Below are positions 1-14,335 of a DNA stretch of 50,229 bases, one piece after another. Under the pieces are notes generated by a model. The model had not been told where the DNA came from and searched no databases. It was given only the letters and a program-made list of their open reading frames with translations. The position numbers and the translations under genes were made by a program. The DNA is from Acidobacteriota bacterium (GTDB taxonomy: Bacteria; Acidobacteriota; Terriglobia; Bryobacterales; Bryobacteraceae), in contig JACQZS010000223.1 of assembly GCA_016213725.1 (NCBI GenBank), forward strand, positions 1 to 50,229. Direction: 5' to 3'. Positions within the stretch are counted from its first letter, which is position 1. Each line of letters begins with the position of its first letter.

Positions 1-3000
1 TCGTCCGAAGCCCCGCTCACGCCCGGCCTCGGCTCCGTCACCGTCACCAGCCGCCCGCGCGCATCCAAAGTGAACTTCTTCCACTTCGTCGTCACCGGCT
101 CGATCACCTTCACCGTGTTGCCTTCGTAAATGTACTGCGTGTAGCCGGCGTTTCCGGGCGGCGTCACCCGGATGGTCCGGCCCCGCTCGTCGTAGAGGTA
201 CTCGGTCCAGTAGACGGTGGCGCCCGGCGCGTATGGCATCGAGACCTTCTTCACCTTGCCCAGCGGCGAGCAGGCGCATGGGCCGTATTCCGTGTCTACC
301 ACGGAAACCACTGTCGAGCCCGCGCCCTTCTCCACCTTGACGGTCCGCCCCAGGCCGTCGGTCGTCGTTTTTGCAAAGTGCCCGTTCGTGGTGGCGGTGG
401 CCGTTGTCGCCGTGTAGCTGTAGGTGGTCACCGCGCCCAGCGCCGAGGTGGTGGAGGAGGGCCGCGACACCGCGTCGTACTGGTAGGTCGAAGAGGCCCC
501 ATTCGGCCCCGCCGCCGAACTCAACCGCAGCACCGAATCGAACTGGAACGAACTCCCCAGATTGTTCTCTCCGTTCGGCACCATCGAAGAAGGCGCCGTC
601 CACTGCGAAGCCGAAGTCACTGTAAACTGCTCCGTCGCCCCGCCCTGCGCCGCCGCCTGCACCACGTTCCCGCCGATGTCGTAGACTACCGTCCCCATCG
701 GCTTACCCAGTGCCTTCGACCTCGTCACCATGCCGCGCGTGTAGTTCGCCGGGCCGTAGCCGGCGGCGTGATAGTTCATGTAGGGCGCATCCACCAGCCA
801 GCCCGTCTGCCCGTAGTAGCCCGGCGTGTCATACCACCACTCGCCCAGCACCGTCGTTTGCGTGCCTTCCTGCACCTCGCTCGTCGTCGCCAGGTGCGCG
901 CCGGCGATGTCGGTGTAGTAGTTGCGGTAGATCCGCGCCGGCGTCGAGAGGCTCCCGTATTCATAGATCCGCCGCTCCGTCACCCCGCCGGAGCTGTCCA
1001 ACACCTGCTCCACCTTGGAGCGCTTCTCGTACGCCGCCCCATAATCCAAGACCGTCTCCGTCGTCCCCAGGTACAGCCTCCCGAGAGCGTCCGTGGCCCA
1101 GGTGAAATCCTCCCGCATCACCACGGTGCCTGTGCTCAGCCGCCAGTCCTCATACCGGAACAGCCGCCGGAAATTGCTCTGAGCCGGGTCGCGGTAGAAG
1201 AACCATGCCCTGGCGTGGTTGTTTGGATCGGTCACCGAGCGGCCGCTTACGGTGACCCCACTCCCCGCGTCGTATCCCGCCAGCGTGTACGACCATGTCG
1301 GAGCCCCCGAGGAAGTCCGCAGATACCGGTATTTCACCTCGCGGAAGCGCTTCCCGTTGCTGTAGTCGGCGTTGTCGTAAGCCCACTCCATTTCCGCGCC
1401 CTTCGGCAGCACGACCTTGGTGAGCTCGCCTGAGTTGCTCGCGCCATATGTGAAGTTGTGCGACAGGTTCACGCCCGGGTTCGTGATGGTAGTGAGCATC
1501 ACCGCCGTTCCAAACGCCGCCCCGGTGAACGGCGATTGCAACGTCGTCTCGCTGCCATAGCCGAACGTGTACTGCTCGGCCGTGTTGACGGCGTTAGTGA
1601 TCTGCGAAAGATGCGGCGTCGGACCGCTGCCGTAATAGAACTGGTAGGCCGCATTCCACGAGCCCCCGGCCCGCACGTCGAAGATCTTCCCGATCCGCCC
1701 GCTGGTATCCGGCAAGCCCACCACGAAGCCGGGGTTGTATTCAATCCCGGTGAGATTCCCGTTGCGATCGACAAAGGCGGTGGGGTAGTACGTCCCCCGG
1801 TCCGCCTCGCCCGCGCCCGAGACGCAGTAGAAGTTCCAGTACGAGCCATCCGGAAACAGAAGCCGGTGCATGGCGTCATCCCACACCACGTAGACCGGCT
1901 CCTTCGAACGCCACTTGCCGCCGCTGTACTGGTCCAGCCGGTATTCGGCGCCGGTCGAATCCACATAGGTCCAGTGATGGATGTTCCACGTGTCGGTGTA
2001 GTGCGGGCGGATTTGCCCCGCCATCAGCATCCAGCCGTAGCCGTAGCCAATATCACGGCCCAGGTTCCACTCCGCCTGGCCGTTGTCCCGCCGCCAGTTC
2101 TGCGAGTTGTAGCTCAGCCCCAAGGGCAGCGTCCAGCCCCCGCGCCGCGTCGCCGCCAGCAGCGGCACAGAGAAGTTCAGGTTCCCCGACATCATGTCGA
2201 TTTGCTCGCCGGCGCCGCCCCAATAGGCGCCGTCGGGCCGCACGCCCACCCGCCGGGCTTCCCCGGCCTGCGTGGGCGTGGTCACGGAGAAGGTGGTGGA
2301 CGGGCCATCATTGGAGTGGCGGTCCACGGGAGAAATCGTATAGCTGTAGGTCTGCCCTGGCTGCACTGTCTGGTCCAGGAAGTAGTTCGACCGAATCAGG
2401 GCGATGACAACACCGTCCCGCCGCAGCCAATAGTGCGGCACGCCCGAACCATATTGCCCGTCATCAGCGCTCTGCCACTGGATCTCCACACTGTTCGGCA
2501 GCGTCGTCGTCGCGACCCGCCCCCGGTCCACTGCCCCTGGCCCTGTGCGGTCGAGGAGCCCCATCTGCACCAGCGTAAATCCGTTGCCTGCCGGAGCGTT
2601 GATCACGCCCACTCCGGGCTGCCCGCCTGGTATGACATTCGCACCCTCAGTGCCATACACAAGCATCCCATTCAAGTAAACGGTTAGAGCTCCGTTATCA
2701 ATCACCACCGTCTGCATCGTGTTCAGCGCCCCCTGCTGGCAACCCACCACTGACGACGACCGCTGCGTGAACACCCCATTCACGCGCTGGTTCACCGTCA
2801 TCGTCATCTGACAGCCGTTGCCCAGCACCACATTGCCCCACTCGATGGAATAGAAAGTCCCCGAAGGCGAAGGCCCCGTCATTGCGTCCTGTGTCGCGTG
2901 AATGTAGTGCACATACGTGCCGCCGGTGGAATCGAGCTTCACCTGCGTCCGCACCTCGTATGCCGCGGTCCCGTCCGGCACCGGGATTTTAGAAATCAGC

Positions 3001-3185
3001 GAAGCGCCCGCACTGGCGCCGCTGTATAGAGGACTCGTCGAATTCGACCAGGATCCGTTCGACTGCCAGTTAGAGCCGTTGATCCCGTACTGAAAGTTAT
3101 CGGAATAGTAGTAGGAATACTGCCCGAATGCGGGCAGAACCAATGCCGGCAGAGCGAGCGCGGCCAGCAGAACGAGGTTTCTCAT
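1..3185 (-). CDS. Secreted RHS/YD-repeat protein, 3' end outside window
   Basis: About 1061 codons are open from an ATG at 3185 to the left edge, so the C-terminus is missing. Residues 1-22 form a signal peptide (MRNLVLLAALALPALV, then an Ala-Phe-Gly-Gln cleavage region). Residues about 23-210 look like a concanavalin-A/LamG-type beta sandwich. A fibronectin-III-like segment follows (about 225-305). From about residue 330 comes the RHS core start (MMSGNLNFSVPL, LPLGLSYNSQNW) and then many Tyr-rich YD-type repeats (YEYGSL, YDERGRTIRV, DARGRLVTV). A cysteine-bearing segment, EYGPCACSPLGKVKKV, occurs near residue 970. RHS proteins build a closed shell that often carries a variable C-terminal toxin; whether this one does cannot be seen here. 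It starts inside the stop of the upstream 137-aa gene (ATGA), so the two are translationally coupled. The family call is firm; the function is open. Confidence 0.85.
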   Translation of the reverse strand, partial: MRNLVLLAALALPALVLPAFGQYSYYYSDNFQYGINGSNWQSNGSWSNSTSPLYSGASAGASLISKIPVPDGTAAYEVRTQVKLDSTGGTYVHYIHATQDAMTGPSPSGTFYSIEWGNVVLGNGCQMTMTVNQRVNGVFTQRSSSVVGCQQGALNTMQTVVIDNGALTVYLNGMLVYGTEGANVIPGGQPGVGVINAPAGNGFTLVQMGLLDRTGPGAVDRGRVATTTLPNSVEIQWQSADDGQYGSGVPHYWLRRDGVVIALIRSNYFLDQTVQPGQTYSYTISPVDRHSNDGPSTTFSVTTPTQAGEARRVGVRPDGAYWGGAGEQIDMMSGNLNFSVPLLAATRRGGWTLPLGLSYNSQNWRRDNGQAEWNLGRDIGYGYGWMLMAGQIRPHYTDTWNIHHWTYVDSTGAEYRLDQYSGGKWRSKEPVYVVWDDAMHRLLFPDGSYWNFYCVSGAGEADRGTYYPTAFVDRNGNLTGIEYNPGFVVGLPDTSGRIGKIFDVRAGGSWNAAYQFYYGSGPTPHLSQITNAVNTAEQYTFGYGSETTLQSPFTGAAFGTAVMLTTITNPGVNLSHNFTYGASNSGELTKVVLPKGAEMEWAYDNADYSNGKRFREVKYRYLRTSSGAPTWSYTLAGYDAGSGVTVSGRSVTDPNNHARAWFFYRDPAQSNFRRLFRYEDWRLSTGTVVMREDFTWATDALGRLYLGTTETVLDYGAAYEKRSKVEQVLDSSGGVTERRIYEYGSLSTPARIYRNYYTDIAGAHLATTSEVQEGTQTTVLGEWWYDTPGYYGQTGWLVDAPYMNYHAAGYGPANYTRGMVTRSKALGKPMGTVVYDIGGNVVQAAAQGGATEQFTVTSASQWTAPSSMVPNGENNLGSSFQFDSVLRLSSAAGPNGASSTYQYDAVSRPSSTTSALGAVTTYSYTATTATATTNGHFAKTTTDGLGRTVKVEKGAGSTVVSVVDTEYGPCACSPLGKVKKVSMPYAPGATVYWTEYLYDERGRTIRVTPPGNAGYTQYIYEGNTVKVIEPVTTKWKKFTLDARGRLVTVTEPRPGVSGASD

Positions 3186-3595
3186 TTCGCACCTCCCTGC
3201 TTGTGGCCGGTAAGGAAGTCGTCGAGATCAAAGTCCTTCCTGTACTTCTTCAACTCCTTTTCCACGTCGTCCCGCTTCCCCTGTCCGCGCTCGAAGACTT
3301 TGACCGCACCGCCTTTCCCCGTCTTGACATCGGTCAAATCCTGTAGGCCCTCCGCCGTCACCCGGCTTAATTCCAGCTCGACAATGGCATATTGGCCATC
3401 GTCGCTGGCGATCCAGTGGTAATTGAAGCCTCCCTCCACAGGCAGCGCTGGCCGCCTCGGATCCTCCCAAGTCCCCTTACCTTTCATCGTAGTGACGGCG
3501 ATCAGTTTCCGCCCGCCGCCGGAAGATTCCGCCAGAACCGGAAGCGCCATAGCGCAGAATAGGGAAAAGAGGATCACGATACCTGAAATCCGCAT
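3182..3595 (-). CDS. Small secreted protein of unknown function, coupled to RHS gene
   Basis: 137 aa with a clear signal peptide (MRISGIVILFSLFCAMALPVLA). The mature part contains GKGTWEDPRRPALP, then a beta-rich segment (HWIASDDGQYAIVELE), and ends in a charged, helix-prone tail rich in Lys, Asp and Glu (about residues 103-137, including KKYRKDFDLDDF). I do not recognise a named family. Its stop overlaps the RHS start by 4 bp (ATGA), so the pair is co-translated and both products should be exported. A role as chaperone, anchor or accessory factor of the RHS shell is inference from this arrangement. Classical RHS immunity genes follow the toxin end rather than precede the shell, so immunity is less likely. 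The start is the ATG at 3595, with a TAGAGT box 6 nt upstream. Confidence 0.75.
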   Translation of the reverse strand: MRISGIVILFSLFCAMALPVLAESSGGGRKLIAVTTMKGKGTWEDPRRPALPVEGGFNYHWIASDDGQYAIVELELSRVTAEGLQDLTDVKTGKGGAVKVFERGQGKRDDVEKELKKYRKDFDLDDFLTGHKQGGAK

Positions 3596-4209: not shown

Positions 4210-4803
4210 TCAGCGGACGGTGAGGGCGAAGTCGACGTCGAGGACGATGGATTCTTTGGTGACTTTGACCTGGCGCAATTCGAAGGTTGTCAGCTCGCGG
4301 CGGTAGTGGGTGGCGGGGGAGAGGTCTTCGAGGAGTTCGCGGGCGCGGGCGGCGATGTCGAGGCTGAACTCCTTTTCGAGGCTTTCGGCGAGGGCTTTGC
4401 GGACGCGGCGGATGTAGAACGAATCCTTGCCGCCGGTGTCGATGTGGACTTCGGAGAGGACGAGTTTGCCGCGCTTCACAAGGGGGGTGGCGGCGACGGT
4501 GAGGTCGAAGGCATCGCCGAGGCCGACACAGCGGCCGAGGACGTCGAGGCCTTTGCGGCCGGAGAAGCGGGCTTTGACGATCAACTGGCCGTTCCATTCG
4601 CCGGCGGCGGGGGTCTCGAGGTAGGCGAAATCGCAGCGCTTTTCGCGGGCTCCGGCAACGTATTTGCGGCCCTCCTGGGTGAAGACCTGCTCGGCCATCA
4701 GGCGGCCGATGACGGGGTAAGCGAGGCGGACCTCGGCGGCCGCGGCGGCGGCGGGCAGAAAGAGGGCCAGGGCGGCGGCGGGGAGGAAGGGTCGGGCCGG
4801 CAT
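4210..4803 (-). CDS. Secreted protein of unknown function
   Basis: 197 aa from an ATG at 4803. Residues 1-23 are a signal peptide (hydrophobic, ending AAAAAAE). The mature region begins VRLAYPVIGRLMAEQVF and contains a single Cys pair candidate (residues near 57 and 91), alternating beta-strand-like segments, and a long amphipathic helix near 130-155 (RRVRKALAESLEKEF). It ends in another strand-rich segment (SIVLDVDFALTVR). I do not recognise the family; the pattern of one long helix between beta-rich halves resembles lipid-binding or pseudo-dimeric envelope folds, but that is speculation. It is 12 bp downstream of the SDR gene and is the last gene of the phoH-era run. Confidence 0.65.
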   Translation of the reverse strand: MPARPFLPAAALALFLPAAAAAAEVRLAYPVIGRLMAEQVFTQEGRKYVAGAREKRCDFAYLETPAAGEWNGQLIVKARFSGRKGLDVLGRCVGLGDAFDLTVAATPLVKRGKLVLSEVHIDTGGKDSFYIRRVRKALAESLEKEFSLDIAARARELLEDLSPATHYRRELTTFELRQVKVTKESIVLDVDFALTVR

Positions 4804-5686: not shown

Positions 5687-6682
5687 TTACAAAATGACGG
5701 GGCCGTCGGGCTCGTCGGCGGCGCCCGGGGAGGCTTCGGGGGCGGTGGGGGCGGCAGGCGCCGCGCCGATCATGGCGCGCCAGTCGAGTTCCTTGAGGAA
5801 CTGCTCGTTTTCGCGCCAATTGGGGCTCACCTTGACGAACAAGGTGAGGAAGACGCGGGTGCCGAGGATGGATTCGAGCTCGACGCGGGCCTGGGTGCCA
5901 ACTTCTTTGAGGAGGGCGCCGCGTGCGCCGAGAACGATGATCTTCTGGCCGGTGCGCTCGACGTGGATGGTGGCGGAGATGCGGGTGAGCTTGGCATCCT
6001 CCTTCCACTCGTCGATGAGGACGGCGACGGAGTGGGGGACCTCCTGGCGGGTGAGGGCGAGGATCTTCTCGCGGATGATTTCGGAGGCGAGGAAGCGTTC
6101 GGGCTGGTCTGTGATGTGATCCGGCGGGAACCAGGCGGGGCCGGCGGGCATGCGCTGGAGGATGGCGGCGCGGAGTTCTTCGACGCCCTCGCCGGTGAGG
6201 GCGGAGATGGGGAAGACCTCCTCGAAGGGGTGCCACTGGCGGTAGTGCTCGATGAGGGCGAGGAGGACGTCTTTACGGGAGAGGGCGTCGATCTTGTTGA
6301 AGACAGCGAAGGCGGGGGCGCCGGCCTGGCGGATGAGAGCAACGGCCTGTTCGTCGAGAGCCGAGGGGGGACGGGTGGAATCGATGAGGAAGAGGAGGAG
6401 GTCACGTTCCTGGAGGGCTTCGCCGATGGATTGCATCATGCGGCGGTTGAAGAGCGAGTCGGCCTGATGGATGCCGGGGGTATCGACGAAGACGACCTGG
6501 GATTGAGGGGTATTCCAGACGCCCTGAATGGTGGTGCGGGTGGTTTGGGGCTTATCGGCGACGATGGCGAGCTTCATGCCGGTGAGGGCATTGAGGAGGG
6601 TGGACTTGCCGGAGTTGGGGCGGCCGAGCAGGGAGACGAAGCCGGAGCGGAAGGCGGGTTTGCGGGTGCGGGGTTTACTCAC
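5687..6682 (-). CDS. era: GTPase Era
   Basis: 331 aa. Era binds 16S rRNA near its 3' end and acts as a GTP-dependent checkpoint in 30S ribosome assembly at the inner membrane. G1 GRPNSGKST (20-28), G3 DTPG (67-70), G4 NKID (129-132) and G5 SAL are all present. The C-terminal half carries the KH RNA-binding domain (GARGALLKEVG near 253). A 28-residue Ala/Pro-rich tail after about residue 303 is extra to the usual length. The GTG start overlaps the CorC stop by 4 bp (GTGA). Placement after phoH, ybeY and corC is the classic bacterial order and links it to rRNA maturation. Confidence 0.97.
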   Translation of the reverse strand: MSKPRTRKPAFRSGFVSLLGRPNSGKSTLLNALTGMKLAIVADKPQTTRTTIQGVWNTPQSQVVFVDTPGIHQADSLFNRRMMQSIGEALQERDLLLFLIDSTRPPSALDEQAVALIRQAGAPAFAVFNKIDALSRKDVLLALIEHYRQWHPFEEVFPISALTGEGVEELRAAILQRMPAGPAWFPPDHITDQPERFLASEIIREKILALTRQEVPHSVAVLIDEWKEDAKLTRISATIHVERTGQKIIVLGARGALLKEVGTQARVELESILGTRVFLTLFVKVSPNWRENEQFLKELDWRAMIGAAPAAPTAPEASPGAADEPDGPVIL

Positions 6683-7941
6683 AGGGATTCCTCTTGATCT
6701 TCAGGGGGGGGCGGAGCGGGGCTGATGCGCACCTTATCCACCCGGTAGTCGTCGGCGGAGAGGATTTCGATGCGCAGGCCGGCGTGTTGGATGACCTGGC
6801 CGGGCTTGGGGATGGCGCCGGCCCATTCGGCGGCAAGGCCGCCGACGGTGGTGGATTCGGTGCCGTCTTCGGGGCGGAAGTCGAACATCTCGTGGAGGTG
6901 GTCGAGGTCGAAGGCGCCGGAGACGGTGATGGAGCCGTCGGGGGAGCGGAGGACGTCGTGCTGGGGCTCGTGCTCGTCGCGGATTTCGCCGAACACCTCT
7001 TCGACGAGGTCCTCCATGGTGGCGAGGCCGGCGAGGCGGCCGTATTCGTCGACGACGTAGACGATGTGGATGCCGCGTTCCTGCATTTCCCGAAGGAGGC
7101 GGGCGACGGGCATGGTTTCGGGGACGGCCTCGATGGGGCGCATGAGGGCGCGGAGGGAGGAAGAGGCGCGCTGGGCGTCGTCGAGTTCGTAGAGATCGCG
7201 GACGTGGACGAAGCCGAGGACGCGATCGATGGTGGACTCGTAGACGGGGATGCGGGAGAACTGCTGATCGCGGGCGAGGCGGCGGAGGGAGTCGAGGGAC
7301 TCGGAGGCTTCGATGGCGACGATGGAGGGGCGCGGGGTCATGACCTCGCGGACGCGCTTGTCGCCGAAGGCGACGACGTTCTGGATGAGGCGGGAGTCCT
7401 CTTTCTCGATGATGCCTTCCTCTTCGCCGGCGGAGATGAGGGCGTCGATCTCCTCGCCGGGCTCAGGGCGGTCTTCGGAAGGAGCGGGAGAGCCGAGTTC
7501 GAAGAGCGACTGGAGAAAGCCCAGGAGAAGGGTGAGGGGCTTGAAGAGGAGAGTGAGGAACTTGAGGAGAGGGACGAACGGCAGAGCCCACTGGCCGGAG
7601 GAGCGGCGGTAGAGGATCTGAGGGAGGACGTAGGCGGCGGCCATCATGACGAGCCAGGCGAGGAGGAAGCCTTCGAGGAAGCCGCGCCAGCTTTCGCCGC
7701 GAGCGGCGGCGGCGGCGACGAAGAGGGCGCCGCAGAGGACGAGGAGGGTGTGCTTGATGAGGGAGAAGACGAAGGCGCCGTCTTCGGTTTCGAAGCCGAG
7801 GCGGTCTTCGAGGGTTTCCTTGAAGAAGGCAAGAGCGTCGGATTCGCGGGTGATGAGGCGGAGGGATTCCAGGTAGAGCAGCTGGATGAAGCTGGCGAGG
7901 AAGAGAAGGAAGCCGAAGACGAAGGCGATGGGGAAGATCAT
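6679..7941 (-). CDS. CorC/HlyC-type CBS-domain membrane protein
   Basis: 420 aa. The N-terminal about 150 residues contain three to four hydrophobic segments resembling the CNNM/DUF21 transmembrane domain, though weaker than usual. A linker ([20 protein letters not shown]) leads into the signature [14 protein letters not shown] and two CBS domains (about 200-320, ending [18 protein letters not shown]). A CorC_HlyC domain follows (about 335-410). Family members take part in Mg2+/Co2+ transport or efflux; the older name hemolysin is not a statement of function. It is coupled to ybeY by ATGA and to era by GTGA. Confidence 0.9.
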
Positions 7942-8381
7942 CGCCGGGCTCTTTCGATGAGGGAGGCGGGGAGCTGGAAATGGGCGCGCCAGCGGGACTC
8001 GGCGCGGCGCATGCGGCCGCGGTCGGATTCGTGGTCGTAGCCGAGGAGGTGGAGGAGGCCGTGGAGGAGGAGGATGCGGAGTTCGGTAGGGGTGTCGTGG
8101 CCGTAGGCGGCGGCCTGGGCGGCGGCGCGGTGCCAGGAAATAGCTATGTCGCCCAGTGGGCCTTGGGGCTCGCCGGAGGGAAACGAGAGGACGTCGGTGG
8201 GGTAGTCCTTGCCGAGGAAGTCGCGGTTCATGCGTTGGAGGCCGGCGTCGGTGGTAATGAGGCAGCAGAAGGGGCGGCCGAGGGCGACTTCATCGCGGAG
8301 GGCGCGGGCAAAGGCCTGGAGTTCGCGGCGGCGGAGGCCGGGCGTGCGGTGTTCGAAGAGAACCAGGGGTTCCGGGGTCAT
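7938..8381 (-). CDS. ybeY: Endoribonuclease / rRNA maturation factor YbeY
   Basis: 147 aa. YbeY is a zinc metalloenzyme needed for 16S rRNA 3'-end maturation and late-stage ribosome quality control. The metal site [11 protein letters not shown] is at residues 107-117 (H107, H111, H117). The upstream substrate-groove motif [10 protein letters not shown] (59-68) and the GDIAIS segment are also conserved. The start overlaps the PhoH stop (ATGA) and the stop overlaps the CorC start (ATGA), so translation is coupled on both sides. Length is typical. Confidence 0.96.
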
Positions 8382-9406
8382 GAATTGGGCGAAGGAGCGG
8401 GCGGCGGCTCAGGAGCTGCCACGTTGGCATCGAGCTTGAGGGACATCTGGCGGCCGATGCCGGACTGTTCGTTATAGCGCTCGTAGGCCTTGACGATGCG
8501 CTGGACGAGCGGATTGCGGACGACATCGTGTTCGTCGAAGGCGATGACGGAGACGCCTTCGACGCCGCGGAGGATTTCAGCGGCTTCGCTGAGGCCGCAG
8601 CGACGGCCGGGGGGAAGGTCGATTTGGGTGAGGTCGCCGGTGATGACCATTTTGGAGTTGAAGCCCTGGCGGGTGAGCACCATTTTCATCTGTTCGGCGG
8701 TGGAGTTCTGGGCTTCGTCGAGGATGATGAAGGCGTCGTTGAGGGTGCGTCCGCGCATGAAGGCGAGGGGGGCGACTTCGATAACGTTGCGTTCGAGGAA
8801 TTTCTCGACCTTCTCGGTGTCGATCATGTCGAACAGGGCGTCGTAGAGGGGGCGGAGATAGGGATCGATTTTCTCCTGGAGGGTGCCGGGGAGGAAGCCG
8901 AGGCGTTCGCCGGCTTCGACGGCGGGACGGGTGAGGATGATGCGGGCCACCTGTTTGTTCAGGAGAGCGGAGACGGCCATGGCGACGGCGAGGTAGGTTT
9001 TGCCGGTGCCGGCGGGGCCGATGCCGAAGACGAGGTCGTGGCGTTCGATGGCGTCGAGGTAGGCGCGCTGGTTGGAGGTCTTGGGGACGAGGGATTTCTT
9101 GCCGAAGTTGCGGGCCTTGCCGGATTCGACGAGGGAGCGGAGGGTGACGGTGTCGTCGGAGATGAGGACGCGGAGGAAGCTGTTGACGTCGGCGGCGGAG
9201 ATGCGCTGGCCGGCCTCATAGAGGGTGATGTAGTCGCGGAGGATGGACTCGGCGCGGGCGGCGCCATGGGGGTCGCCGTCGATTTCGAGCGAGTCCGGGG
9301 TAAGACGAGTTTCAACGGCGAGACCGGATTCGAGGAGGCGAATGTTCTCGTCGCGGGTTCCGAAGAAGGACTCGAGGCCGCGGATTAGGGGCACGCGAGT
9401 TTTCAT
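8378..9406 (-). CDS. phoH: PhoH-family ATPase
   Basis: 342 aa. A PhoH-type P-loop ATPase, likely RNA-related given the near-universal linkage to ybeY and era. Walker A is GPAGTGKT (130-137) and Walker B is FIILDEAQN (226-234). The N-terminal 110 residues contain the KH-like region common to the PhoL branch. The C-terminal tail is Pro/Ala-rich. It is the first gene of a four-gene overlap chain. The ATG at 9406 is followed by KTRVPLIRG. Confidence 0.93.
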
Positions 9407-9455
9407 GCGCTAAGACGGGTCCACGCGAAGAAGGCACGAGCCGTCATGAAGCCAT

Positions 9456-9461
9456 ACTATA
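9456..9461 (-). promoter_or_regulatory. Candidate -10 box upstream of phoH (TATAGT)
   Basis: TATAGT on the minus strand, about 49 nt before the phoH start, in the only gap large enough for an operon promoter. No clear -35 is visible. A five-pair hairpin (CCTGA, loop AGAA, TCAGG) at 9485-9498 overlaps the sigma-gene stop just before it. Confidence 0.3.
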
Positions 9462-9493
9462 GCATAGGCAAGGTGGCGGAGAACCCTGAAGAA

Positions 9494-10114
9494 TCAGGCC
9501 GTGAGGGTGACCAGACCGAGGCGGCCGGTGTGGCGTTGCATGCGTTCCCGGAGTTCGAGGCGGGCGCGCAGAAGCCGGCTCTTGGCGGCGGCCAGGGAGA
9601 TGCCGAGGCGGCTGGCGACGTCGGGCATGGGAAGCTCCTGAACTTCGCGGAGGATGAAGACTTCGCGGAGGAGCGGCGGGATGCGGTGGATCTCCTGGTG
9701 GAGGGTGGTACCGATCTCGGCCTGGGCGAGGGCCTCTTCCGGGGTGGATGATTCGTCGGGCAGGTCGAGGCGGGCCACTTCTTCTCCGGCGACGCCTTCG
9801 TCGAGGTAGAGGAAGCGGGCGCGCTTGTCCTTGCGGAGGCGCATGAGGCACTGGTTGAGAACGATGCGGGAGAGCCAGGTGGAGAACTTGGCGTCCTGGT
9901 TGAACTGGCCAATGTGCTCGTAGGCTTTCCAGAAGGCGTTCTGCACTTCGTCCTCGGCATCCAGCTTGTCCTTGAGAACGGACACAGCGAGGCGCTTGCA
10001 GGTGGACTGATGGCGCTGAATCAGCTCAGAGAAGGCTTCGTTCCCGCCTTGCTGGGCGAGGGCGACGAGCTGCTCATCGGTCAAGTGGTCCAGGTTGGGG
10101 TGGTGCACTCTCAT
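9494..10114 (-). CDS. ECF RNA polymerase sigma factor
   Basis: 206 aa from the ATG at 10114. Region 2 is at about 18-88 (HLTDEQLVALAQQG, then DAEDEVQNAFWKAYEHIGQF, which includes the -10 recognition helix and DDEVQ-like motif). Region 4 is at about 130-185 (PLLREVFILREVQELPMPDVA and the helix ISLAAAKSRLLRAR). An upstream TTG would add 16 residues, but those lack conservation and have no ribosome site. No anti-sigma gene lies next to it on the same strand, so control may be transcriptional or by a distant partner. The start faces the XRE-cupin regulator across a 113-bp shared control region. Confidence 0.92.
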   Translation of the reverse strand: MRVHHPNLDHLTDEQLVALAQQGGNEAFSELIQRHQSTCKRLAVSVLKDKLDAEDEVQNAFWKAYEHIGQFNQDAKFSTWLSRIVLNQCLMRLRKDKRARFLYLDEGVAGEEVARLDLPDESSTPEEALAQAEIGTTLHQEIHRIPPLLREVFILREVQELPMPDVASRLGISLAAAKSRLLRARLELRERMQRHTGRLGLVTLTA

Positions 10115-10184
10115 GATCTCGGCTCTACTTGATGGATGAGTAGAGTATGCCGGAAGAGGCAAAATTTGTGCTCACTTTGAAACT

Positions 10185-12067: not shown

Positions 12068-14335
12068 ATGATTCGACGCGCGGCGATCGGGATGGTGCTG
12101 GGATGGGGACTGTGGGAGGGGAATGCGCGGGGGGGCTGGATCACGGTGAGAGATGGCCGGGCAGCAGTGCAGGCGGATGGGGTAGAGCGGGGGATCGATC
12201 TGAATGGCGGGCGGGTGCGGACGTGGCGGTACATCGTCTATGGACGGGAGATGCTGGCCGCGGAGGCGCGGGAGTTCACGGTAGTGATTTCGAGAGAGGC
12301 GTCGAACAGGAAGCCGCGCGGTTTGCGCCCGGAAGAGGCGGGGGAGAGGAATTCGTTCAGCGCTGGGAACCGGGGGCGTTGGAGGGGGGACGCCTATGAC
12401 GATTCGAGGTATGCGGACACGCGGCCGGACGCTCCGAAATGGGTGGATGCGCGTCTGGTGGAGGCCGGGGCGAAGGGTACTTTCGCGGGCGAGGTAACGG
12501 CGGAAGTGACGCGACCGAAAGAGTGGCTGAAGCGGTTGACGGTACGGGGGAAGTTGACGGGAGCGCCGGTAGTGGAGGGGGTAGAGGTGGAGTTGATTTA
12601 CGAGGTGAGCGAGGGGTATGGGGCGATCCGGAAGTGGGTGAAGGTGAGGAACGGCGGGGGGAAGTGGCTGCGGTTGGAACGGATGACGATCGACGACCTG
12701 CACCTGGCGGCTCTAACGAGGAAGCCGCTGGCCGCGGCGATGTTCGGCGTGCAGCCGAGCGTGGTGGCATTTGAGTTCCAGGGCGGCGAAGCAGGATTGA
12801 TCGCGGCAAGCGAGGTGCCGTCTGCGCTGCGGTCGATTTCGGACCAGGGGGCAATGGGGTACACGCAGGGGCTGTTCGAGTGGGTACTGGGGCCGGGCGA
12901 AGAGTTCACCAGCGAGCCGGTGTTCTACTACGGCTACGGCGGGGCGGCGAAGGCGACGATCTGTGCCACTTCCACTTCGCTGGACCGGGCGGTGGAGGGG
13001 CCGTACATGGAGCATGTGCGGACGGTGATCGGAGTGGAGGCGGACCGGGCGCCGCATCACGGTCCGCAATGGCTGACGTGGGCGTATTTCTACGCGAATA
13101 TCGACGATCCGCTGGTGCGGCAGTTGGCCGGAATTCTGGGGCGGGCGGGCTTCAAGGAGATGCTGCTGGACGACGGGTGGCAGAAGGGGCGGCTGGGGAC
13201 GGAGATCGACACGAAGAAGTTTCCGGATTTCAAGGCGACGTCGGAGTTTGTGCGGAGCAAGGGGATGGCGCTGGGGCTGTGGGTATCGTGCTTCCGGGAC
13301 TTGGATTCGAAGGACATGCGGAAGATGCCGGAGATGCGGATTCTGCCCGAGCTGATGCGGAGCCAGGAGCTGCCGGGGCTGGGGATGAGCTTCGCGTCGC
13401 CGTGGCGGGACTACTACGTGAAGGACCTGGTGGAACTTGGGCGGCGGTATGGGGTGACGTACTTCAAGCAGGATTTCACGAACATCATGTATGGCGATCT
13501 GGCGGAAGGGCATGAGAGCCGGACACGGAAGGAGTCACTGCTGCGCGGGCTGCGGGGGCTGCTGGCGGCACAGGCGGCGCTGCGGGCGGCGGCGCCGGAG
13601 ATGGTGAACGAGATCACGCACGAGATCTATTGGGGCACGCCGGGGGTACCGGCGGACCTGGCGGCGCTGAAGTACACGGCGCGGTTCCACATTCCGCCGA
13701 ACGAGTGCGTGGGATCGGACCTGGCGCGGGAGTTCGGCGGGCGGAAAGTGAGCGCGGAAGAGCACAGGGCGGCGCTGCTGCGCGGCTGCTGGCTGGCGCG
13801 GCAGAGATTCTATTCACACCGGGGACTGCCTTTGAATCCGCTGGAGTTCTATGCCGCGGCGACCGTGAATCACGAAGGAAGCCTGACGCCCGAGGTGCAG
13901 GACCGGCAGGTGGCTAGCTGGCTGATGGGCGCGCCGGTGTGCTATTCGGGCGATGCGCGAACGCTGACGGAGGCGAACATCGCTCATTACGCGAAGCGGC
14001 TGGCCGAGGTGGAGCGACTGGAGAAGCGCTATGGGATCTACAAGCGGTTTCAGTTCAGCGGCGTGCCGGAGCCGACGGACATAGACTGGCACTGGTGGGG
14101 CAAGCTGACCGGCGCGGGCGAAGGCGCCGTGGTGGTGGTGCGCGGAGGCACAACAAGTACGGACGAGCGGGTGGTGAACATTCCGTGGGTGCAGCGGGCG
14201 AGACGGTACAACGTGGCGGGGTTGTTCAGCGGGAAGGCGTACGGCGAATGGACTGGCGCGCAGCTGCAAGATGCGGGCGTGCGGGTCGCGTTAGGGGTGT
14301 ATGGATCGGAGGTGTTGGAACTGACGGCCCGCTGA
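12068..14335 (+). CDS. Secreted clan GH-D (GH36-like) alpha-galactosidase-type hydrolase
   Basis: 755 aa from the ATG at 12068, preceded by a strong ribosome site (GGAGG). A signal peptide covers residues 1-26. An N-terminal beta-sandwich (about 30-330) is followed by a TIM barrel with EMLLDDGWQKG, FVRSKGMALGLWV and YFKQDF, where D469 is the expected nucleophile. The acid/base is less clear; candidates are in GSDLAREFGG. A C-terminal beta domain ends the protein. Likely substrates are alpha-galactosides or related plant or microbial glycans, acting in the periplasm or outside. It is divergent from the UroD-fold gene across 47 bp and ends 4 bp before the convergent DedA stop. Confidence 0.85.
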   Translation: MIRRAAIGMVLGWGLWEGNARGGWITVRDGRAAVQADGVERGIDLNGGRVRTWRYIVYGREMLAAEAREFTVVISREASNRKPRGLRPEEAGERNSFSAGNRGRWRGDAYDDSRYADTRPDAPKWVDARLVEAGAKGTFAGEVTAEVTRPKEWLKRLTVRGKLTGAPVVEGVEVELIYEVSEGYGAIRKWVKVRNGGGKWLRLERMTIDDLHLAALTRKPLAAAMFGVQPSVVAFEFQGGEAGLIAASEVPSALRSISDQGAMGYTQGLFEWVLGPGEEFTSEPVFYYGYGGAAKATICATSTSLDRAVEGPYMEHVRTVIGVEADRAPHHGPQWLTWAYFYANIDDPLVRQLAGILGRAGFKEMLLDDGWQKGRLGTEIDTKKFPDFKATSEFVRSKGMALGLWVSCFRDLDSKDMRKMPEMRILPELMRSQELPGLGMSFASPWRDYYVKDLVELGRRYGVTYFKQDFTNIMYGDLAEGHESRTRKESLLRGLRGLLAAQAALRAAAPEMVNEITHEIYWGTPGVPADLAALKYTARFHIPPNECVGSDLAREFGGRKVSAEEHRAALLRGCWLARQRFYSHRGLPLNPLEFYAAATVNHEGSLTPEVQDRQVASWLMGAPVCYSGDARTLTEANIAHYAKRLAEVERLEKRYGIYKRFQFSGVPEPTDIDWHWWGKLTGAGEGAVVVVRGGTTSTDERVVNIPWVQRARRYNVAGLFSGKAYGEWTGAQLQDAGVRVALGVYGSEVLELTAR

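What the first reader, a model, noticed from the sequence alone, without database searches (positions are those of the whole stretch)
1..3595. Secreted RHS protein co-translated with a conserved-looking small secreted partner
Both proteins carry signal peptides and share an ATGA overlap, with the small gene first. Textbook RHS systems have the immunity gene after the toxin tip, so this partner is more likely an export, anchoring or shell-folding factor. The RHS N-terminus adds a ConA-like and an FN3-like module, suggesting surface display or glycan targeting. The toxin tip, if any, is just outside the window.
Basis: partly seen in the sequence, partly recalled or inferred. Interest (0 to 1): 0.55.

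Follow-up and report, generated by a model that had tools for sequence, protein, structure and literature searches.

The report
Exported partner of secreted RHS toxins
In one family of soil bacteria, a small exported protein of unknown family is encoded directly in front of giant secreted toxin-carrier (RHS) proteins and stays with them even when the toxin tip is swapped, so it is probably a helper that folds or exports the carrier rather than the antidote.

Summary
A 137-aa gene with a signal peptide (3182-3595, minus) overlaps by ATGA a signal-peptide RHS gene that runs off the contig end. AlphaFold2 plus Foldseek support the ConA-like and FN3-like domains.

The small protein matches no Pfam or NCBIfam family. 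It was found only in the window's own bacterial family (60 of 257 order genomes; named relatives are mainly Bryobacterales MAGs). In 47 of 52 fetched loci a same-type RHS gene follows; three misses are contig ends and two are damaged copies. In the reverse search, 55 of 64 RHS N-termini had it upstream.

Full-length relatives look like polymorphic toxins: Rhs core, variable tips (10 of 23 with HExxH, one glucosaminidase), often an exported gene downstream, and orphan tip cassettes. Two paralogs in one complete genome share the small gene and RHS shell but differ in tip and downstream gene. The small protein is therefore not tip-specific immunity.

Best reading: a dedicated, tip-independent exported accessory factor (folding or export escort) for Sec-exported RHS toxins, analogous in position to EagR and MafA but related to neither by any test passed here. 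The mechanism is inferred, not shown. New variant of a known kind. The window's own tip cannot be read.

The parts
3182..3595 (-). Small exported partner gene, 137 aa: signal peptide (about residues 1-22) and a 115-aa alpha/beta domain with near-invariant loops GxGTxxDPRRP (residues 39-49) and SDDG (64-67)
   Evidence: ORF; alignment of 46 homologues; AlphaFold2 model pLDDT 79.3, pTM 0.72; no Pfam or NCBIfam match
3182..3185 (-). ATGA overlap: stop TGA of the small gene and start ATG of the RHS gene
   Evidence: Sequence; 21 of 37 loci with a placed RHS start overlap by 4 bases
3190..3197 (-). Shine-Dalgarno-like GGGAGGTG of the RHS gene, inside the small gene
   Evidence: Sequence
3..3185 (-). 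RHS gene, 3' end cut by the contig end: signal peptide, ConA-like domain, FN3-like domain, RHS shell
   Evidence: ORF; PF05593; TIGR01643
2547..3125 (-). ConA-like jelly-roll domain (about residues 21-213 of the RHS protein)
   Evidence: AlphaFold2, Foldseek to CBM66 and galectins; limits approximate
2277..2546 (-). FN3-like domain (about residues 214-303)
   Evidence: limits approximate
3..2255 (-). RHS/YD shell, incomplete; Pfam RHS_repeat at residues 883-918
   Evidence: homology to full-length relatives

Best explanation
The small gene encodes a dedicated exported accessory protein of a Sec-exported RHS polymorphic toxin. It is made first, from the same message and by coupled translation, goes to the periplasm, and acts there on the constant part of the RHS protein (shell and N-terminal domains). 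Most likely it is an escort or folding factor that lets the huge shell close around whatever tip it carries, or keeps it competent for the next export step. The gene after the tip, not this one, would be the immunity gene. Shown: the pairing, the order, the frequent overlap, the tip independence, the shared history with the RHS protein. Inferred: binding, place of action, and the folding or export role.
For: Pairing 47 of 52 loci and 55 of 64 in reverse; frequent 4-base overlap; signal peptides on both (by eye); purifying selection, dN/dS 0.16, near-invariant loops; paralogs L028/L029 keep the small gene and shell (92% of bases over 5603) but differ in tip and downstream gene; partner kept with HExxH, glucosaminidase and other tips and with extra N-terminal RHS domains; distances correlate with every constant RHS segment, r 0.43-0.58, 0 of 2000 permutations; 3 of 10 genomes with the pair have no TssK match.
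Against: No interaction or activity has been tested. The fold search gave no significant match and no chaperone family. The correlation does not single out one contact surface and shared descent alone can give it. Some RHS N-terminus places lack the small gene (9 of 64), three at contig edges, five of the rest fetched and broken. Several RHS genes downstream of the small gene carry in-frame stops or frameshifts.
Confidence: 0.5

Rival explanations
1. Outer-membrane export or surface-anchoring factor: the small protein carries the RHS protein across, or holds it on, the outer membrane, working like MafA for MafB.
For: Upstream, exported and tip-independent, as with MafA, which is needed for secretion of its neighbour MafB (PMC7738311, abstract); lectin-like N-terminus of the RHS protein.
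Against: Lipobox-like pattern in only 1 of 46 homologues; the model is a small compact alpha/beta domain without a membrane-spanning part. MafA is reported in the outer membrane as large oligomers (abstract).
Confidence: 0.22
2. Co-secreted subunit of the RHS particle (for example a cap, or part of target recognition) that leaves the cell with it.
For: Near-obligate pairing and shared history; two conserved loops with charged residues could be a binding surface.
Against: No direct evidence; no carbohydrate-binding or receptor-binding family matched.
Confidence: 0.15
3. Immunity protein placed in front of the toxin.
For: Small, exported and adjacent to a toxin gene.
Against: Kept unchanged across tip swap in L028/L029 and across unrelated tips; exported or lipoprotein-like ORFs sit right after several tips.
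Confidence: 0.05
4. Leader ORF: the small gene matters mainly for coupled translation or dosage of the RHS gene, its product being secondary.
For: Overlapping start and stop.
Against: Protein-level constraint (dN/dS 0.16), near-invariant residues in 46 homologues, signal peptide kept; loci with a gap of 9-49 bases keep the gene too.
Confidence: 0.04

Closest known systems
EagR (DUF1795) effector-associated chaperones of T6SS Rhs effectors
   Same: Small gene immediately upstream of an Rhs toxin gene, kept while tips vary; EagR1 is required for its adjacent Rhs effector (PMC4524185, passages)
   Different: No match to DUF1795; signal peptide here; the partner has no PAAR match; EagR binds effector transmembrane segments (PMC7773334, abstract)
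MafA-MafB-MafI of Neisseria
   Same: Exported protein encoded beside a secreted polymorphic toxin and needed for its secretion (PMC7738311, abstract)
   Different: MafA is an outer-membrane protein forming large oligomers (abstract); here a small protein without a lipobox in 45 of 46 homologues
WapA of Gram-positive bacteria
   Same: RHS toxin with a Sec signal and dedicated upstream accessory genes (PMC12704120, passages)
   Different: Accessory proteins there are a membrane SecF-like protein and sortase SrtB; here a different, exported protein
Default-secreted RHS polymorphic toxins (Zhang et al. 2012)
   Same: Signal peptide, carbohydrate-binding-type N-terminal domain, RHS repeats, variable tips including HExxH peptidases and glucosaminidase (PMC3482391, passages)
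   Different: In the passages seen no conserved upstream exported partner is described

Membership tests
RHS polymorphic toxin (the large protein) | RHS/YD repeats | tested here: met
   PF05593 E 2e-7 above cut-off, TIGR01643
RHS polymorphic toxin (the large protein) | Rhs core domain followed by a variable tip | tested here: inconclusive
   Window copy is cut by the contig end; relatives have the core in 10 of 10 C-termini given to NCBIfam and variable tips
RHS polymorphic toxin (the large protein) | Immunity gene after the tip | tested here: inconclusive
   Outside the contig in the window; in relatives exported-looking ORFs follow several tips, protection not tested
EagR / DUF1795 | DUF1795 sequence family | tested here: not met
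   No such match in 9 members at E up to 10
EagR / DUF1795 | Partner with PAAR/prePAAR region for T6SS | tested here: not met
   No PAAR match in the window RHS or in L023, L024, L030, L032
EagR / DUF1795 | Immediately upstream of Rhs | tested here: met
   47 of 52 loci
MafA | Lipoprotein-type signal | tested here: not met
   Lipobox-like pattern in 1 of 46 homologues; that MafA is a lipoprotein is recalled
MafA | Outer-membrane location, oligomer, needed for toxin secretion | not testable with these tools
   Needs fractionation and gene deletion
Cognate immunity protein | Changes together with the toxin tip | tested here: not met
   L028 and L029: near-identical small protein, different tips

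The most novel reading that the evidence does not exclude
A previously undescribed family of periplasmic RHS-shell foldases: proteins that assemble the closed RHS cage around a toxin after Sec export, outside the cytoplasm and without T6SS, restricted to one family of Acidobacteriota.
Probability: 0.3. Interest if true: 0.75.

Novelty: new variant of a known kind. Interest (0 to 1): 0.5.

Why it matters
How Sec-exported RHS toxins, which must pass the inner membrane unfolded, build their closed shell and leave a two-membrane cell is largely unexplained. A small exported protein that almost always goes with the constant part of such toxins is a concrete, deletable candidate for that step. It is also a marker for finding such toxins in soil Acidobacteriota, for which the library searches made here found little on toxin systems.

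Tried and rejected
Immunity reading: rejected on tip independence. Phage or mobile origin of the small protein: no tblastn match in plasmids or phages, none confirmed among 41 pattern matches in viral contigs; PHROG matches weak and scattered. T6SS cargo: signal peptide, no PAAR match, and 3 of 10 genomes with the pair lack a TssK match (one of the three is only 78% complete). The other 7, the own genome included, do have TssK, so T6SS is not excluded everywhere. Fold searches of the small protein: only weak ACT/ferredoxin-like matches, no function drawn from them; a Boca chaperone-domain row (Z 3.8) is tied with unrelated rows and was not used. Solved-structure search by sequence: one chance-level hit, E 1.4. 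Readthrough of in-frame stops in some RHS copies: considered and set aside, because in the G007 pair the stop lies in 131 codons with dS 0 while dS behind it is 0.38, which fits recent gene conversion. A small+RHS fusion: not found. Reading the window's own tip: not possible.

Rows dropped before counts: 6 second fragments of the 80 rows, rows of E 1.7e-21 or weaker that match only the FN3/linker part of the model, and second pieces of the same place (64 places kept by hand). One search kept 24 loci with an unbroken, long enough RHS N-terminus and dropped two near-duplicates.

Results against: 18 of 74 small-gene rows had no RHS N-terminus within 4 kb. Five are in the 52-locus set (three contig ends, two damaged copies). 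Thirteen were fetched: 3 have RHS remnants downstream, 6 run into contig ends, 4 show no RHS; all 13 are weak or partial matches. Nine of 64 RHS N-terminus places had no small gene: three run off a contig edge, five were fetched and are truncated or broken in their N-terminus, and G117:C174 was not fetched.

Not in print: no paper on this pair was found by the searches; subscription papers and preprints are not held.

Full report
Observation. The window is a whole contig (G000:C159). At its left end, on the minus strand, a 137-aa ORF (3182-3595) overlaps by ATGA the start of an RHS ORF (3-3185) that runs off the contig. Both start with signal-peptide-like sequences (by eye). A Shine-Dalgarno stretch GGGAGGTG precedes the RHS start inside the small gene. 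Pfam finds RHS repeats (PF05593). The small protein matches no Pfam family at E up to 0.001 or 10, no NCBIfam family, and PHROGs only weakly.

Domains. The RHS N-terminus (316 residues, 10-row alignment) gives an AlphaFold2 model of mean pLDDT 84.7, pTM 0.77. Foldseek finds a ConA-like jelly roll (CBM66, galectin and L-type lectin chains, TMt up to 0.72) and FN3. The small protein (115 mature residues, 17 rows) gives mean pLDDT 79.3, pTM 0.72, order b1-b2-b3-a1-b4-a2. Its best PDB matches are ACT/ferredoxin-like domains, none significant, and there is no significant viral match.

Distribution. The window's small protein is found in 14 of 61 genomes (own genome included): 14 of the 37 of its own family and 0 of 24 outside it. 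With a profile: 54 of 200 family genomes; 60 of 257 order genomes, all 60 in the same family; 2 of 297 genomes of a phylum-wide sample, both of that family. In the named genome collection 17 loci were confirmed of 173 pattern matches. Their titles are mostly Bryobacterales, Bryobacteraceae, Solibacter and related Acidobacteriota MAGs; one MAG is titled Myxococcales (L111) and one Acidimicrobiia (L115). L111 too has the RHS start next to the small gene. These two may be misnamed or mixed MAGs: the contig of L115 has the same length as that of G063, a genome of the window's own family.

Linkage. Of 52 loci examined with profiles of the small protein and the RHS N-terminus (window, 19 loci, 32), 47 have the RHS N-terminus next on the same strand. 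The five others are L040, L093, L094 (contig ends), L025 (a damaged copy with an RHS remnant further on) and L080 (small gene truncated, no RHS start). Over the rows, 56 of 74 have an RHS N-terminus within 4 kb; the 18 misses are told under Tried and rejected. Conversely 55 of 64 RHS N-terminus places have the small gene upstream. In 37 loci where an RHS start could be placed by script, 21 overlap by 4 bases, 3 by 1, 2 lie at +1 and 11 further; a strict Shine-Dalgarno pattern was seen in 18 of 37. The script's choice of start is a rule of thumb.

What the RHS proteins are. Unbroken relatives are mostly about 1700-1950 aa, with Rhs_assc_core in L023 and L030 and in 10 of 10 C-termini given to NCBIfam. 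Of 23 C-terminal tips read, 10 carry HExxH near the end. One is a glucosaminidase above the Pfam cut-off (L023). A GIY-YIG match (L076) and a lytic-transglycosylase match (L096) stay below cut-offs. Several tips are followed at once by an ORF with a signal-peptide or lipoprotein-like start (for example L023, L026, L028, L029, L038, L075, L098, by eye), the usual immunity position, and several loci carry partial RHS cassettes further downstream (for example L026, L032, L076, L078, L096). This is the anatomy of a polymorphic toxin system as described by Zhang et al. 2012 (PMC3482391, passages), who also list HExxH toxins with RHS repeats and laminin-G-type N-terminal domains in default-secreted toxins.

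Tip independence. In genome G007 (two contigs), loci L028 and L029 are 92% identical over 5603 bases, from before the small gene to near the end of the shell. The proteins then diverge: 94-100% identity per 100 columns for 1400 columns, then 17 of 69, 23 of 73 and 8 of 24 aligned residues over the tip. One tip has HExxH and the other not, and different ORFs with exported-looking starts follow. The small protein therefore belongs to the constant part. In 24 loci with unbroken N-termini its distances correlate with those of the ConA domain (r 0.47), FN3 (0.43) and two shell stretches (0.53, 0.58); none of 2000 permutations reached any of these. The lead of the shell is slight (85% of subsamples) and may be noise; shared descent alone can give such correlations. 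RHS proteins with extra domains in front of the ConA domain (L072 and L075, named L108 and L109; also L074, L085, L092, L101, judged) keep the partner.

Mechanism. Shown: pairing, order, overlap, tip independence, constraint on the protein (dN/dS 0.16). Signal peptides were judged by eye. Inferred: the small protein acts in the periplasm on the constant part of the RHS protein as an escort or folding factor. A Sec substrate must cross unfolded, and an RHS shell must close around its tip, so a dedicated helper made just before it fits (established knowledge plus inference). A MafA-like export or anchoring factor and a co-secreted subunit are the main rivals. A T6SS role is unlikely as a general rule: TssK is found in 7 of 10 genomes with the pair but not in G001, G151 and G092.

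Comparison with the known. By position it resembles EagR, required for its adjacent Rhs effector (PMC4524185, passages; PMC7773334, abstract), and MafA (PMC7738311, abstract). WapA has dedicated upstream SecF-like and SrtB genes (PMC12704120, passages). The small protein is not a DUF1795 protein and its start reads as a signal peptide. I file it as a new variant of a known kind: an unnamed, lineage-restricted family of exported accessory proteins of RHS toxins. Confidence is high for the pairing and tip independence and about one half for the escort/folding role.

Noticed in passing
L028 (oriented 4338) and L029 (4590), both G007; also L033, L035, L038, L082, L089: Single in-frame stops inside otherwise long open RHS frames. 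In the G007 pair both copies share the TGA, in a stretch with dS 0 over 131 codons while dS behind it is 0.38, which suggests recent gene conversion that spread the stop.
   Followed up: partly
L172 (G000:C175:9000-13278), contig 12076-13278: A second RHS shell piece in the window's genome that runs off its contig end; probably an orphan cassette.
   Followed up: partly
L026, L028, L032, L076, L078, L096: Partial RHS C-terminal cassettes in a row downstream of the main RHS gene, like orphan toxin tips.
   Followed up: partly
L072/L108, L075/L109, also L074, L085, L092, L101: Some of the RHS proteins carry extra, unrelated-looking domains between the signal peptide and the ConA-like domain.
   Followed up: no
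G000:C250:4667-8114 and the same in other relatives: Two neighbouring T6SS TssK (PF05936) genes side by side in several genomes.
   Followed up: no
window 4210-4803: 197-aa ORF with a signal-peptide-like start and no Pfam match; a 197-aa ORF with similar ends lies at the same place in the G008 locus L022.
   Followed up: no
window 5687-10162: Era-type GTPase, CBS/CorC, YbeY, PhoH and a sigma-70-like factor in a row next to the pair: ordinary housekeeping neighbours.
   Followed up: yes
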